A stretch of DNA of 64,000 nt, taken from Thermincola carboxydiphila. GTDB lineage: Bacteria; Bacillota; Thermincolia; Thermincolales; UBA2595. Below are positions 10,131-61,947 of the stretch, piece by piece. A program made the translations under genes and the position numbers. The stretch covers positions 1 through 64,000 of the forward strand of contig JAENYP010000003.1 in assembly GCA_016841725.1 (NCBI GenBank). The letters run 5' to 3'. The first letter of the stretch is position 1. Every line of letters begins with the position of its first letter. Under the pieces are notes generated by a model. The model was given only the letters and a program-made list of their open reading frames with translations, was not told where the DNA came from and ran no database searches.

Positions 10131-10161
10131 CAGAGGAGAAAAATTTTGCTTCGGAAGTAAA

Positions 10162-10211
10162 AGGCTGTAAACCTGCCGGGAACCAATCCTGGGTTGGGGT
10201 GCAGCTTTTTT
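10162..10211 (+). terminator. Imperfect terminator after csaB
   Basis: An extended, interrupted stem (GCTG/CAGC at the base, AACC/GGTT inside) followed by seven T residues at 10205-10211. The bulges lower confidence. Confidence 0.5.
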
Positions 10212-10351
10212 TACTGGCAAAAGTAAAAAATAATTAAAGAAAAAATTCTTTCCTACCCCATTAAACCGACACATACCCCCGAATAAATATGAATATAAAA
10301 AGAGAGGGAGATTACTGAAACATTCCCTAAATATTGGTTGTCCGAAAGCTG

Positions 10352-10381
10352 TTGACTAGTGGGTCGGGAATTAGGTATAAT
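10352..10381 (+). promoter_or_regulatory. Strong sigma-A-type promoter of the S-layer gene
   Basis: TTGACT (10352-10357), 18-base spacer, TATAAT (10376-10381). This is the best -35/-10 pair in this region and the first after the csaB terminator. It predicts a transcript start near 10388 and a leader of about 327 bases. Confidence 0.75.
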
Positions 10382-10387
10382 TAATTC

Positions 10388-10714
10388 AGATTTGTGGCAC
10401 AATAATCCTTTTGAGTTAATGTAGTCCCAGTGCAGGAAGGGAACAGCAGCAGGCCTAAATCAAACCAGAACAAATAGTGACAAAAAAATAAAAAAATTCC
10501 GCCTTGTTGAAGGAAAACTTATCCAGTATGTAGAATGAAAACGAATAGGCTAAAATTATGCGGCTTAAAATTTCTAAAGGTATAAACCTTTAGTATTATT
10601 GGTTCTAGATAAGTATCTCTTGAAGGGGGTGTTGCAACAAAAGATAGGTGAATAGGCGGATTTTTTATTGGTTTCAAAAGAAAGAGAAAATAAGCAAAGG
10701 GGGATTTTAGAAGA
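10388..10714 (+). promoter_or_regulatory. Long untranslated leader of the S-layer mRNA
   Basis: No gene is visible in this 327-base stretch. It contains a perfect 7-bp hairpin (CTAAAGG/CCTTTAG, 10574-10593) and ends in the AAAGGGGGAT ribosome site of the S-layer gene. Long stable leaders are typical of S-layer mRNAs. I saw no known riboswitch motif. A second weak promoter (TTGAAG ... TAGAAT near 10507-10536) is possible. Confidence 0.5.
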
Positions 10715-42760: not shown

Positions 42761-42806
42761 ATAATTTTCTGTTGATTTTAAAGAAGGTCTCTCAAGGTAG
42801 TATAAT

Positions 42807-42880
42807 CCCCTTATAATAGACACACAAAAAAAGAGAACCTTATAATTGGTTCTAAAGTGTGTCTCTGTAAGGGGGTTTTT
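42807..42880 (+). repeat. Long composite hairpin with terminator-like T-tract
   Basis: Three nested stems: CCCCTTA/TAAGGGG (42807-42813 with 42868-42874), AGACACAC/GTGTGTCT (42818-42825 with 42857-42864) and AGAACC/GGTTCT (42834-42839 with 42848-42853), then TTTTT at 42876-42880. It could terminate the Fn3-SLH transcript and also looks like the end of an insertion sequence, because a transposase-like start codon follows 2 bases later. Confidence 0.7.
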
Positions 42881-42966: not shown

Positions 42967-42982
42967 TTAATACAATAGGTAT

Positions 42983-43011
42983 TTGTCGATATTATGTTTT
43001 TATGGTAAAAT
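42983..43011 (+). promoter_or_regulatory. Promoter of the type I toxin mRNA
   Basis: TTGTCG (42983-42988), 17-base spacer, TAAAAT (43006-43011); predicted start near 43018. A perfect 12-bp palindrome AGTTGTACAACT (43014-43025) overlaps the predicted start and could be an operator. Confidence 0.55.
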
Positions 43012-43075
43012 TTAGTTGTACAACTGCATAAGTGCGGGTGGGCGGCCAATCCCTCATAGAAAGGGGGTGAGGCCA

Positions 43076-43189
43076 GTGACAATTTTCGAGGCAATATATC
43101 TAATGCTATCCTTTGGGATGTATACTCTGGGTGTTGCGTCACTGATCATTTCACTGATTGTCTTAGTATACTACATAAGAAAAAAGTAG
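43076..43189 (+). CDS. Putative holin-like type I toxin (BsrG/TxpA type)
   Basis: A 37-residue peptide read from GTG at 43076: MTIFEAIYLMLSFGMYTLGV, then one hydrophobic helix and a YYIRKK tail. The layout (short polar start with [F/Y]E, LMLSFG, a single membrane helix, two or three terminal lysines) fits the small membrane toxins BsrG (MTVYESLMIMINFG...) and the putative holin-like toxin family. AAGGGGG lies 8 bases before GTG, and GGCC at 43044 and 43071 plus CCC/GGG can fold to mask it, as is typical for toxin mRNAs. A convergent antisense RNA overlaps its 3' part. The product would depolarise the membrane if not repressed; that is inferred from the family. Confidence 0.75.
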   Translation: MTIFEAIYLMLSFGMYTLGVASLIISLIVLVYYIRKK

Positions 43190-43213
43190 TCCCACCTGCA
43201 AAGTGTACTACTT
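43178..43213 (-). terminator. Terminator of the antisense RNA
   Basis: On the - strand AAGTAGT (43213-43207) pairs with ACTACTT (43190-43184), with an inner CAC/GTG, followed by a run of six T residues (43185-43180). On the + strand the same stem contains the toxin stop codon. Confidence 0.7.
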
Positions 43214-43257
43214 CTTTCTTATGCTAACCGACCGCTCACTTGCGGTAGTTGTACGTG

Positions 43258-43287
43258 CTAGGGTGCTGGTAACACCCTAGTTAATTT
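43258..43287 (+). terminator. Terminator of the toxin mRNA
   Basis: A perfect 8-bp stem CTAGGGTG/CACCCTAG (43258-43265 with 43273-43280) with a 7-base loop and a short T-rich tail (TTAATTT). The tail is weak. Confidence 0.6.
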
Positions 43288-43306
43288 ATGCTCAATTTGT
43301 ACCCTT

Positions 43307-43336
43307 ATTATACAACGGGTACACGATAAATTACAA
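43307..43336 (-). promoter_or_regulatory. Promoter of the antisense RNA
   Basis: On the - strand TTGTAA (43336-43331), 18-base spacer, TATAAT (43312-43307). The -10 is perfect. An inverted repeat TGTACCC (43298-43304) / GGGTACA (43317-43323) flanks the -10 and may be a regulator site. The remaining gap to 43517 shows no gene. Confidence 0.65.
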
Positions 43337-58243: not shown

Positions 58244-59431
58244 ATGAACATTCTTTTTTTGGAACAATACAGTAAAATAAGCGGGGGCCAATTATGCCTG
58301 CTGGAACTGATTGAAAGGCTAGACCGGCAGGAATTCAATCCGGTTGTGGCTGTCCCGGAGAAAGGTGAATTAACGGAGCGGCTTCACAGCATAGGAGTGG
58401 AAAACCTGGAGGTGCCTGTGGGAGGCTATTCCTCAGGGAAGAAAAGCCTTTGGGATATGCTGAATTACTTTCTTAGGAGTATAATCCTGGTGCCTCTGAT
58501 TTTACGGATAGTCAAGGCTCATAATATTGACCTGGTTTATGCCAATGCTCCCAGGACTTTCCCATGGGGTACTGCTGCTGCCCGGTTGGCTGGTGTTCCC
58601 GTGGTCTGGCATGTGCACAGTATGTTGGGGCGCAGGCTCGAAAAAAGGCTTACCCGTTCCCTGCTGAGACTTAAACCGGCGCGGATTATTACAGTTTCCC
58701 GGGCTGTAGCCGCATCATTCCTGGACAGAGAGTCAGACCCGGAAGCAGATATTGTATATAACGGGGCAGATCTCGCCAGGTTTAATCCGGAGCGGGACGG
58801 GACTGAGTTCAGGAAGGAATTTCCCGTAGCCCCAGACATGCCGTTGATAGGGATCATCGGCCAGGTATCTGAGTGGAAAGGACATGAAACCTTTATCAGG
58901 GCCGCCGGTGAAGTTGTAAAAAAGTTTCCCGGGGCCAGGTTCATGATTATAGGAGCCCCTTTGTACGACGGTGTAAAAGGGGAGCGGTTTATTGACTATC
59001 TGAAAAGCCTGATTGGGGAACTGGGTCTTGAAAACAATGTCATTTTCACTGGGCCGCGGCAGGATATCCCACAGATAATGAATGCCTTGAATATCATAGT
59101 CCTGGCGTCAAAGGAGCCTGACCCGTGCCCGAGAGTTGTCATGGAAGGGCTGGCCTCAGGCAGGCCGGTAATTGCCACTGCCCATGGGGGCGCCCCGGAG
59201 ATAATTAATCCCGGTATTGACGGGCTGTTGTTTGCCCCTGGGGACTATCAAGAACTTGCCAATAAAATAGTTCAATTAATCGAGCAGCCGGACATGGCGG
59301 AGTCAATTGGGAAAAAGGCCAGAGAAAAGGCTGAGAACAGATTCAATATTGAAAACTACTCAGGGCAGCTGATAAAGATTTTACGGGAAGCAGCCAGTCC
59401 TGGTGTCAGGGGAGGGAAGCATCAGCTATGA
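58244..59431 (+). CDS. GT4-family glycosyltransferase
   Basis: A 395-residue GT-B protein: ILFLEQYSKISGGQLCLLELIERL start, DLVYANAPRTFPWGTAAARLAG, VVWHVHSMLGRRLEKR, ITVSRAVAASFL, IGIIGQVSEWKGHETFIRAAGEV, FMIIGAPLYDG and LASKEPDPCPRVVMEGLASGRPVIAT. The donor site and the EX7E-type glutamates are intact. It overlaps the next glycosyltransferase gene (ATGA). This part of the module is clearly more GC-rich than the methyltransferase block at 47.5-50.2 kb. Confidence 0.85.
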   Translation: MNILFLEQYSKISGGQLCLLELIERLDRQEFNPVVAVPEKGELTERLHSIGVENLEVPVGGYSSGKKSLWDMLNYFLRSIILVPLILRIVKAHNIDLVYANAPRTFPWGTAAARLAGVPVVWHVHSMLGRRLEKRLTRSLLRLKPARIITVSRAVAASFLDRESDPEADIVYNGADLARFNPERDGTEFRKEFPVAPDMPLIGIIGQVSEWKGHETFIRAAGEVVKKFPGARFMIIGAPLYDGVKGERFIDYLKSLIGELGLENNVIFTGPRQDIPQIMNALNIIVLASKEPDPCPRVVMEGLASGRPVIATAHGGAPEIINPGIDGLLFAPGDYQELANKIVQLIEQPDMAESIGKKAREKAENRFNIENYSGQLIKILREAASPGVRGGKHQL

Positions 59432-60534
59432 AAGTTGCCATAGTCCACGAATGGCTGGCCAACATGGGCGGTTCCGAAAAAGTTGTCCTGGCCTTTAAGG
59501 AGATATTCCCCGATGCCCCTATATATACCACTGTGTACAATCCGGATAAGGTTGACCCGGCCTTTCATAACATGGATATTCGGACCTCCTTTATCCAGAA
59601 ACTGCCGCGGGGCAGGACTGCCTACCAGTCTTACCTGCCGCTGATGCCTACTGCAGTTGAACAGTTTGACCTCAGCGGCTATGATGTGGTCCTCAGCAGC
59701 AGCCATGCAGTGGCTAAAGGTGTGCTTACAGGGGCCAATACCCTGCACATCACTTACTGCCATACACCCATGCGTTATGCCTGGGATTTCTACCATGAGT
59801 ACCTGAACGGGCCGGGGGTGGGCCGGGTCAAGAGAATGCTGATCCCCTGGCTGATGAACTATATCCGCATGTGGGACAGGCTTTCTGCTGACCGGGTTGA
59901 CTATTTCATTGCCAACTCCGGCAATGTGGCCGGGCGGATCAGGAAGCATTACCGCAGGGAAGCAGCGGTAATTTACCCGCCTGTGGATACTGAGTATTTT
60001 ACTCCTGCTGATGAAATCGGAGATTACTATTTCATTGTTTCCCGTTTGATACCTTACAAGAGGATTGACCTTGCCGTTGCAGCCTTCACCCGTTTGGGGT
60101 TACCCCTCAAAATAGCTGGAGACGGCCCGGAGCGGAAGAGGCTGGAGGAGATAGCCGGACCCAGTGTGGAGTTTCTGGGCCGGGTTTCTGATGCCGAAAT
60201 GAAGAAACTATATGCGGAGTGCAAGGCCTTCATTTTTCCCGGGGAAGAGGATTTTGGCATCACTCCGGTTGAGGCCCAGGCTGCCGGCCGGCCCGTGATT
60301 GCCTATGGCGCCGGCGGATGTCTGGAAACTGTCGTTTCCGGAGTAACCGGAGAGTTTTTTCAGTCCCAGACGGCAGATGCCCTGGCTGAGGTTGTCGCCG
60401 GGTTTGACCCGGGCAGATACCAAACCGGGTTAATCCGTCAGCATGCTCTCAGTTTTGACCGGGAATTATTTAAAAAACGCATTTATATTTTTGTTGAAAA
60501 TAGATACAGGGATTTCAAAAAGAATGGCAGATAG
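59428..60534 (+). CDS. GT4-family mannosyl/rhamnosyltransferase (WbaZ-like)
   Basis: A 368-residue GT-B protein: VAIVHEWLANMGGSEKVVLAFKEIFPDAPIYT start, DVVLSSSHAVAKGVL, ITYCHTPMRYAWDFYHEYL, YFIANSGNVAGRIRKHY, YPPVDTEYFTP, YFIVSRLIPYKRIDLAVAAF and FPGEEDFGITPVEAQAAGRPVIAYGAGG with intact EX7E. This outline, with HTPMRYAWD, matches WbaZ/WcaC-type mannosyltransferases. Start overlaps the previous stop and the initiating transferase follows, so it may add the second sugar. Confidence 0.85.
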   Translation: MKVAIVHEWLANMGGSEKVVLAFKEIFPDAPIYTTVYNPDKVDPAFHNMDIRTSFIQKLPRGRTAYQSYLPLMPTAVEQFDLSGYDVVLSSSHAVAKGVLTGANTLHITYCHTPMRYAWDFYHEYLNGPGVGRVKRMLIPWLMNYIRMWDRLSADRVDYFIANSGNVAGRIRKHYRREAAVIYPPVDTEYFTPADEIGDYYFIVSRLIPYKRIDLAVAAFTRLGLPLKIAGDGPERKRLEEIAGPSVEFLGRVSDAEMKKLYAECKAFIFPGEEDFGITPVEAQAAGRPVIAYGAGGCLETVVSGVTGEFFQSQTADALAEVVAGFDPGRYQTGLIRQHALSFDRELFKKRIYIFVENRYRDFKKNGR

Positions 60535-60555
60535 TTGTTTTTGGGGGAGATAGCT

Positions 60556-61947
60556 TTGCTTAAAAAGTACCAGCGGTTTTTCAACCTGATAATATTTGCC
60601 CTTGACGGGCTTGTGCTGACAATATCATATTTTGCCGCTTATGTCTTTAAGTGGGGATTTTACCCGATCAGCCAGATGGACTACCTGTACCTTAAAGCTC
60701 CCTTGTGGATGATTCCCCTGGTGCTCACCGTATACTTCTTTATGGAAGTATATTCACCCATGCGGAGCCGGATGCTCCGTAAGGAAATGCTGCTGGTCAT
60801 GCGGTCTCATGCAGTAGGGATGATACTTATTTATGGCCTGCTTTACCTGACCAAAATGTACATTTACTCCCGGGTAGTGCTGTTTACCTTTGGGGTTATT
60901 TCACTGGCGCTGATACTCATGGACCGTTTCATCATGCGCCGGGTGCTCCGTTACCTGCGTTCCATCGGCTATAACCAGAAACATTTGCTGATTGTGGGAG
61001 CAGGCACGGTGGGGCTGGAATTTGCCCAAAAGGCCATGGTCAACAAAGAATTTGGCTACAATGTAGTGGGGTTTTTGGATGACGATAGGGATAAGAAGGG
61101 CAGTGAGGTCCTCAACCGAAAGGTTTTGGGGGACTGCACCATACTGCCGGAACTGCTTGCTTCCAAGAGCGTGGATGAGGTTATTATTGCTTTGCCCCTG
61201 AGCGCTTATCAAAAATACCATGGCATTGTGAATGTGTGTGAAAAAGCAGGAGTAAGGGTGCGCATTATCCCGGACTACTTCGACTATCTCCCGGGGCGGC
61301 CCAAGGTGGAGGAATTTGATGAAATCCCCCTGCTCAATATCCGCCATGTCCCCCTGGATGACCCCTTTAACAGGTTTATTAAAAGACTGTTTGATGTTGT
61401 GGTTTCTCTGACGGCAACAATAATTACCCTGCCGCTGATGGTTATCATAACAGCCGGGGTTACCCTGACCTCCCGCGGTCCTATCCTTTTTAAACAGGAA
61501 CGGGTTGGGCTGAACAACAGGCCCTTCAATATGTACAAATTTCGCTCCATGCGTGTTGCTGGGGATTCATCCTCAGATACCGGATGGACGACTGCAGATG
61601 ACCCGCGCAAGACCTGGTTCGGGGCCTTCATCCGGAAAACCAGCCTTGATGAACTGCCACAGTTTTTTAATGTCCTGCTGGGTGACATGAGTGTGGTCGG
61701 GCCAAGGCCTGAACGCCCGTTTTTCGTGGAACAGTTCAAAGAGGAAATTCCCAAATACATGGTTAAACACCAGGTCAAGCCGGGTATCACCGGATGGGCC
61801 CAGGTCAATGGCTGGCGGGGGGATACCTCGATAGAAAAACGCATTGAGTGTGATATCTATTACATCGAAAACTGGGACTTATTGTTTGATGTAAAGATAA
61901 TGCTGTTAACTATTATAAAGGGCCTGATAAACAGAAATGCATACTAG
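60556..61947 (+). CDS. Undecaprenyl-phosphate sugar-1-phosphate transferase (initiating enzyme 2)
   Basis: A 463-residue WcaJ-type enzyme: four N-terminal membrane segments (about 10-125), a Rossmann-like middle domain (HLLIVGAGTVGLEFAQKAM, about 148-166), a fifth membrane helix and the catalytic domain with FKQERVGLNNRPFNMYKFRSM, KTSLDELPQFFNVLLGDMSVVGPRPERPFF and VKPGITGWAQVNGWRGDTS. The GWAQVNGWRGDT form is common in glucose- or galactose-1-phosphate transferases. TTG at 60556 follows GGGGGAGA at normal spacing. It would start the second glycan, separate from the one begun by the enzyme at 15919. Confidence 0.88.
   Translation: MLKKYQRFFNLIIFALDGLVLTISYFAAYVFKWGFYPISQMDYLYLKAPLWMIPLVLTVYFFMEVYSPMRSRMLRKEMLLVMRSHAVGMILIYGLLYLTKMYIYSRVVLFTFGVISLALILMDRFIMRRVLRYLRSIGYNQKHLLIVGAGTVGLEFAQKAMVNKEFGYNVVGFLDDDRDKKGSEVLNRKVLGDCTILPELLASKSVDEVIIALPLSAYQKYHGIVNVCEKAGVRVRIIPDYFDYLPGRPKVEEFDEIPLLNIRHVPLDDPFNRFIKRLFDVVVSLTATIITLPLMVIITAGVTLTSRGPILFKQERVGLNNRPFNMYKFRSMRVAGDSSSDTGWTTADDPRKTWFGAFIRKTSLDELPQFFNVLLGDMSVVGPRPERPFFVEQFKEEIPKYMVKHQVKPGITGWAQVNGWRGDTSIEKRIECDIYYIENWDLLFDVKIMLLTIIKGLINRNAY

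What the first reader, a model, noticed from the sequence alone, without database searches (positions are those of the whole stretch)
42983..43336. Probable type I toxin-antitoxin module between the two glycan modules
A 37-codon gene (43076-43189) encodes a BsrG/holin-like membrane peptide. It has its own promoter, a Shine-Dalgarno that can be folded away, and a 3' terminator. On the opposite strand a promoter with perfect TATAAT and an intrinsic terminator define an antisense RNA of about 123 nt that overlaps the toxin 3' region. The layout equals TxpA/RatA and BsrG/SR4. The location, beside an IS remnant and between two surface-glycan modules, suggests a role in stabilising this locus. Inverted repeats at 43014-43025 and around the antisense -10 are additional possible control sites.
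Basis: partly seen in the sequence, partly recalled or inferred. Interest (0 to 1): 0.75.

Follow-up and report, generated by a model that had tools for sequence, protein, structure and literature searches.

The report
BsrG-type RNA-controlled toxin module
The stretch holds a real, ordinary type I toxin-antitoxin module of the BsrG family (a small membrane peptide silenced by an overlapping antisense RNA) in a Thermincola-like bacterium; its closest relatives, but not this copy, carry a DNA-damage (LexA) switch in the toxin promoter that I did not find reported for this family.

Summary
The finding is confirmed and can be named. Window 43019-43280(+) matches the Rfam family BsrG (RF01412) end to end, above its gathering score. 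The 37-residue peptide passes Pfam's Hol_Tox cut-off. Both predicted RNAs fold far better than shuffles. Across 17 related copies the two terminators, the 5'-3' closing helix and the SD hairpin keep their pairing, 14 pairs with compensatory changes. With the antisense-bound part blocked, the predicted SD hairpin grows from 5 to 10 bp, as in BsrG/SR4.

The module is single-copy here. It is present at the same place in one congener and cleanly absent in another. It sits in a conserved segment between two variable glycan gene blocks, so 'stabilising this locus' is not supported. The 'IS remnant' could not be confirmed. The two extra inverted repeats are not conserved.

One unexpected result concerns the relatives. 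In 9 of 12 BsrG-type copies of this class a LexA/SOS box overlaps the toxin -35 region at a fixed distance. The same box lies by lexA in all nine class genomes where lexA was found. The window copy and its ortholog lack it. SOS control is known for E. coli tisB, symE and dinQ; I found no report for BsrG/TxpA.

Verdict: new member of a known kind.

The parts
42983..43011 (+). toxin promoter (TTGTCG-17-TAAAAT, extended TG -10)
   Evidence: consensus scan; -10 with TATGGTAtAAT conserved in relatives
43018..43287 (+). predicted toxin mRNA, Rfam BsrG match 43019-43280
   Evidence: RF01412 64.1 bits, gathering 55; fold z -5.7
43018..43027 (+). 5' strand of the mRNA closing helix (GUACAACUGC), pairs with the 3' strand round 43242-43254
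   Evidence: fold; 7 bp paired in 100% of cells in 17 copies
43033..43045 (+). second half of the closing helix (GCGGGUGGGCGG), pairs with 43230-43239 and beyond
   Evidence: fold; 93.5% of cells paired
43044..43074 (+). Shine-Dalgarno hairpin: CCCUC 43051-43055 with GGGGG 43063-43067 in the free mRNA; extended by GGCC 43044-43047 with GGCC 43071-43074 when the antisense-bound part is blocked
   Evidence: U-A/C-G exchange in the SD helix; the extension has no covariation support
43076..43189 (+). toxin ORF, 37 aa, GTG start: VTIFEAIYLMLSFGMYTLGVASLIISLIVLVYYIRKK
   Evidence: Pfam Hol_Tox 27.2 bits, cut-off 23.3
43257..43281 (+). intrinsic terminator of the toxin mRNA
   Evidence: 6 of 8 pairs with compensatory changes
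43307..43336 (-). antisense promoter (TTGTAA-18-TATAAT)
   Evidence: -10 TATAAT conserved in relatives on the minus strand
43178..43300 (-). predicted antitoxin antisense RNA, about 123 nt, overlapping the toxin mRNA 3' half
   Evidence: fold z -5.8; promoter and terminator conserved
43176..43221 (-). intrinsic terminator of the antisense RNA, reaching into the last toxin codons
   Evidence: 6 of 11 pairs with compensatory changes

Best explanation
A chromosomal type I toxin-antitoxin module of the BsrG/TxpA kind. A sigma-70-type promoter makes a ~270-nt mRNA for a 37-aa single-pass membrane peptide. The mRNA closes on itself (5' end with 3' part) and keeps its Shine-Dalgarno in a short hairpin. 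A convergent promoter makes a ~123-nt antisense RNA that covers the 3' half of the mRNA. Binding frees the 5' strand, which lets the SD hairpin lengthen and shuts off translation, and the duplex is a substrate for RNase III. Shown here by sequence: family membership by RNA and protein profile, conserved paired elements. Inferred: transcription, toxicity, the binding-induced switch, RNase III decay.
For: Rfam BsrG full length over gathering and Pfam Hol_Tox over cut-off. Full-length BsrG matches in 6 of 9 family genomes and 45 of 399 phylum genomes, with B. subtilis as the only control genome that rings. Sense and antisense RNA z-scores -5.7 and -5.8. Over 17 copies 94.3% of cells pair, 14 pairs carry changes on both sides and no shuffle of 500 reaches this; slid versions fall to 39-54%. 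With the antisense-covered part blocked the SD hairpin grows from 5 to 10 bp in the window copy and grows in 11 of 17 copies, reaching at least 9 bp in all. Same switch, 4 to 8 bp, is measured for bsrG/SR4 (PMC6562991). ORF and both RNAs are kept in the G004 ortholog with 2 substitutions and one gap in 355 columns while neighbouring CDS differ by 12%.
Against: No transcript or toxicity data. The Rfam score, 64 bits, is well below B. subtilis-type members (133-161 bits). The extended SD helix has no covariation support on this alignment, and 6 of 17 copies are predicted to have it already in the free mRNA. The G004 ortholog has lost one C in the sense terminator stem.
Confidence: 0.9

Rival explanations
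1. The module is an addiction cassette that holds the surface-glycan locus in place.
For: It lies between two glycan gene blocks with O-antigen ligase and ABC-2/Wzt genes.
Against: It sits in the segment shared with G004, outside the two stretches that have no counterpart there; G005 keeps the neighbouring SLH protein and ligase genes without it; in relatives the modules lie next to varied non-glycan genes such as smpB, msrAB and an AsnC regulator.
Confidence: 0.06
2. A decayed, silent relic of a BsrG module.
For: Toxin -10 is TAAAAT rather than TATAAT; low Rfam score; GTG start; an insertion of 7 residues in the peptide compared with relatives.
Against: ORF, SD, both promoters and terminators are intact and nearly unchanged between two species whose neighbouring genes differ by 12% and at 29% of fourfold sites; one substitution in the ORF, synonymous.
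Confidence: 0.05
3. A small secreted or holin-like peptide gene without antitoxin; the antisense promoter is a chance match.
For: Pfam calls the family 'putative holin-like toxin'; promoter matches of this quality occur by chance.
Against: The antisense -10 and terminator are conserved in copies that share little else; 6 of 11 antisense-terminator pairs show compensatory changes.
Confidence: 0.03

Closest known systems
bsrG/SR4 of Bacillus subtilis prophage SPbeta (Rfam RF01412)
   Same: Full-length RNA profile match; convergent antisense RNA over the 3' half; 5'-3' closing helix; SD hairpin predicted to lengthen on antisense binding.
   Different: Chromosomal, no phage match found; peptide and RNA sequence strongly diverged (64 against 133-161 bits for Bacillus-type copies); heat-shock behaviour untested.
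txpA/RatA of Bacillus subtilis (skin element)
   Same: Small membrane toxin, antisense RNA over the mRNA 3' end.
   Different: The profile that matches is BsrG; the predicted SD switch is a bsrG/SR4 trait not seen for txpA/RatA (PMC6562991).
tisB/IstR-1, symE/SymR, dinQ/AgrB of E. coli
   Same: LexA box at the toxin promoter, but only in the Thermincolia relatives, not in the window copy.
   Different: Unrelated toxins and RNA layout.
PepG1 (NCBIfam NF041589)
   Same: Weak profile similarity, 21.8 bits.
   Different: Far below the family cut-off of 70 bits.

Membership tests
BsrG RNA family (Rfam RF01412) | covariance-model score at or above gathering (55) | tested here: met
   64.1 bits, positions 1-259 of 259
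Hol_Tox toxins (PF16935) | profile score at or above 23.3 | tested here: met
   27.2 bits for the 37-aa peptide
BsrG/TxpA type I TA | convergent antisense RNA overlapping the toxin mRNA 3' half | tested here: inconclusive
   promoter and terminator present, conserved and covarying; transcription not shown
BsrG/TxpA type I TA | mRNA 5' end pairs with its 3' part | tested here: met
   predicted fold; 100% and 93.5% of cells paired in the two helices over 17 copies
bsrG/SR4 | antisense binding lengthens the SD hairpin | tested here: inconclusive
   predicted 5 to 10 bp in the window copy; no covariation support for the added pairs
BsrG/TxpA type I TA | peptide is toxic when the antisense RNA is absent | not testable with these tools
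   needs an expression assay
BsrG/TxpA type I TA | RNase III-dependent decay of the RNA duplex | not testable with these tools
   needs an rnc mutant
SOS-controlled type I toxin (tisB-like control) | LexA box overlapping the toxin promoter | tested here: not met
   best site in the window copy scores at background (8 of 11, locus background p about 0.5); present in 9 of 12 copies of the class
PepG1 (NF041589) | score at or above 70 bits | tested here: not met
   21.8 bits

The most novel reading that the evidence does not exclude
In the class that holds the window (Thermincola and kin), BsrG-type toxins have come under direct LexA control: a LexA box covers the toxin -35 region at a fixed distance in 9 of 12 copies, so DNA damage would induce the toxin over its antisense RNA, a Gram-positive counterpart of tisB/IstR-1 built from an unrelated toxin. 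The window copy is a diverged lineage outside this control.
Probability: 0.75. Interest if true: 0.6.

Novelty: new member of a known kind. Interest (0 to 1): 0.4.

Why it matters
It places a complete BsrG-type module, with covariation support for its working parts, in metal-reducing and anaerobic Thermincola-like bacteria, outside Bacillus and outside prophages. The comparison also gives 17 diverged copies that test the SR4-type switch, and exposes a LexA box on the toxin promoter of the sister copies: if real, SOS control of type I toxins arose independently in Gram-positive bacteria, which bears on whether damage-induced membrane peptides are a convergent strategy.

Tried and rejected
Weak second BsrG match in the own genome (C18, 20 bits) is part of a longer unrelated frame, the same in G004. 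Transfer from Desulfitobacterium kin, suggested by the similar 5' leader: the tree puts the window pair on its own long branch beside the other class copies and not with Paradesulfitobacterium, but support is modest. IS remnant: no support. First alignment A1 had minus-strand loci in the wrong orientation and was replaced by A2. Covariation of the extended SD helix: not supported; the register shifts by one between copies.

Full report
WHAT IS THERE. GTG 43076 opens a 37-codon frame behind AAAGGGGGTG. A promoter with an extended -10 ends at 43011, a terminator lies at 43257-43281, and on the minus strand TTGTAA-18-TATAAT lies at 43336-43307. Taken singly such strings are cheap (9 promoter-like sites against 3.5 expected). 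Taken together they are not: cmscan of the whole 64-kb window at gathering thresholds returns one match only, Rfam BsrG at 43019-43280(+), end to end, 64.1 bits against 55. The peptide passes Pfam Hol_Tox, 27.2 against 23.3; PepG1 and ComI are far below their cut-offs.

WHERE IT IS. The genome is G000 (3.88 Mb, 40 contigs). The module is the only one in the genome over the cut-off. Upstream is an SLH/fn3 protein, downstream an O-antigen ligase and a Wzm/Wzt-type exporter; a second ligase and exporter lie at 13.6 and 21.5 kb.

RELATIVES. BsrG matches over or near the cut-off occur in 6 of 9 family genomes, one or two full-length copies each, and in 45 of 399 genomes of the phylum. The named kin found with a leader-plus-SD pattern are Thermincola, HGW-Firmicutes-14, SKS1.bin35, Desulfosporosinus, Paradesulfitobacterium and Peptococcaceae CEB3. 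The congener G004 has the window copy at the same place; G005 has the flanking genes at 83-84% identity with a clean empty site, 88 bp instead of 657.

DIVERGENCE. Between the window and G004 the module proper (42982-43336) differs by 2 substitutions in 354 (0.6%) and one gap, its outer edges by 3%, the spacer after it by 11%, the ligase CDS by 12% and fourfold sites by 29%. Other intergenic spacers of the region differ by 2.9 to 16.7%. Strong constraint, or recent exchange of the block between the species, or both, would explain this; I cannot separate them. Exchange is plausible because other genes of the region differ by only 2.5-4.7%.

STRUCTURE. The mRNA folds at -101.8 kcal/mol (z -5.7, no shuffle as good), the antisense RNA at -45 (z -5.8). 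On an alignment of 17 copies (A3) the named structure pairs in 94.3% of cells, against 39-54% when slid, with 14 pairs changed on both sides and 0 of 500 shuffles reaching this. The sense terminator has such changes in 6 of 8 pairs, the antisense terminator in 6 of 11, the SD helix and the closing helix in one each. MAFFT made the alignment without structure, and the structure was written by me from the folds and motifs, so the percentage leans towards it; the compensatory counts do so less.

HOW IT WORKS. In the free mRNA the 5' strand GCGGGUGGGCGG is held by the 3' part, and CCCUC/GGGGG (5 bp) covers the SD. If everything under the antisense RNA is made unavailable, the freed GGCC at 43044-43047 pairs with GGCC at 43071-43074 and the SD hairpin has 10 bp. 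The hairpin grows in 11 of 17 copies and has at least 9 bp in all. This is what was measured for bsrG/SR4, where the SD-sequestering stem goes from 4 to 8 bp (PMC6562991). The added pairs have no covariation support, so the switch is a prediction that rests on folding and on that precedent. Toxicity at the membrane and RNase III decay are inferred from the family.

A module that secures a glycan locus should lie in it. This one lies in the segment shared with G004, between two stretches (about 21.4-36.7 and 47.4-59.4 kb) for which no long alignment to G004's contig was found, and G005 does without it. Neighbours of kin modules are housekeeping genes. The most that can be said is that it is a free-standing chromosomal module whose trigger is unknown.

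THE LEXA BOX. The alignment showed CGAACAAATGTTTG and variants before the toxin -10 in the sister copies. This is the Gram-positive LexA/DinR box (own knowledge: CGAACRNRYGTTY). Tests: GAACRNRYGTTYG occurs 109 times in the ten class genomes and its reversed control 22 times; it lies by lexA in all nine genomes where lexA was found. At the toxin promoter it lies 44-48 bases before the mRNA end in nine of twelve class copies, six of them exact. The sequence between box and -10 is not conserved, so the box is kept on its own account. The nine copies form one weakly supported group (66/92), so they count as few independent events. Desulfosporosinus, Paradesulfitobacterium and CEB3 copies have no box. 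A few copies in other families of the phylum do (L037 CGAACACATGTTCT, L044, L054, L125); with about 60 upstream stretches tested and single p-values of 0.02-0.09, these may be chance. The window copy and its ortholog score at background. A review states SOS control for E. coli symE, tisB and dinQ and post-transcriptional control for the B. subtilis toxins (PMC6562991); searches of the held papers gave no SOS-controlled BsrG or TxpA. Subscription papers were not searched.

VERDICT. Observation confirmed; family assignment firm; proposed role not supported; new member of a known kind. Interest is moderate, mostly for the promoter of its relatives.

Noticed in passing
L010, L008, L013, L009, L015, L012, L016, L011, L049, upstream of the toxin -10: LexA/SOS box at a fixed distance before the BsrG-type toxin promoter in nine class copies; absent in the window copy.
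   Followed up: yes
window 10131-10714: Intergenic stretch of 584 bases differs by only 2.9% from G004 while neighbouring genes differ by 6-23%; no Rfam match at gathering. Possible unannotated RNA or regulatory element.
   Followed up: no
window 42805-42877: Strong hairpin with weak similarity to Listeria rli53 (22.5 bits, E 0.04, far below gathering); absent from G004 and single in the genome; it interrupts the terminator-like repeat behind the SLH gene.
   Followed up: partly
window 59428-61947: Two genes only 2.5-4.7% diverged from G004 in a region that otherwise differs by about 12%; suggests recent recombination.
   Followed up: no
L037, L044, L054, L125: LexA-like boxes before BsrG matches in other families of the phylum; singly not significant after the number of tests.
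   Followed up: partly
L104 (Peptococcaceae CEB3): A BsrG-type copy whose toxin frame is cut short, apparently decayed.
   Followed up: no
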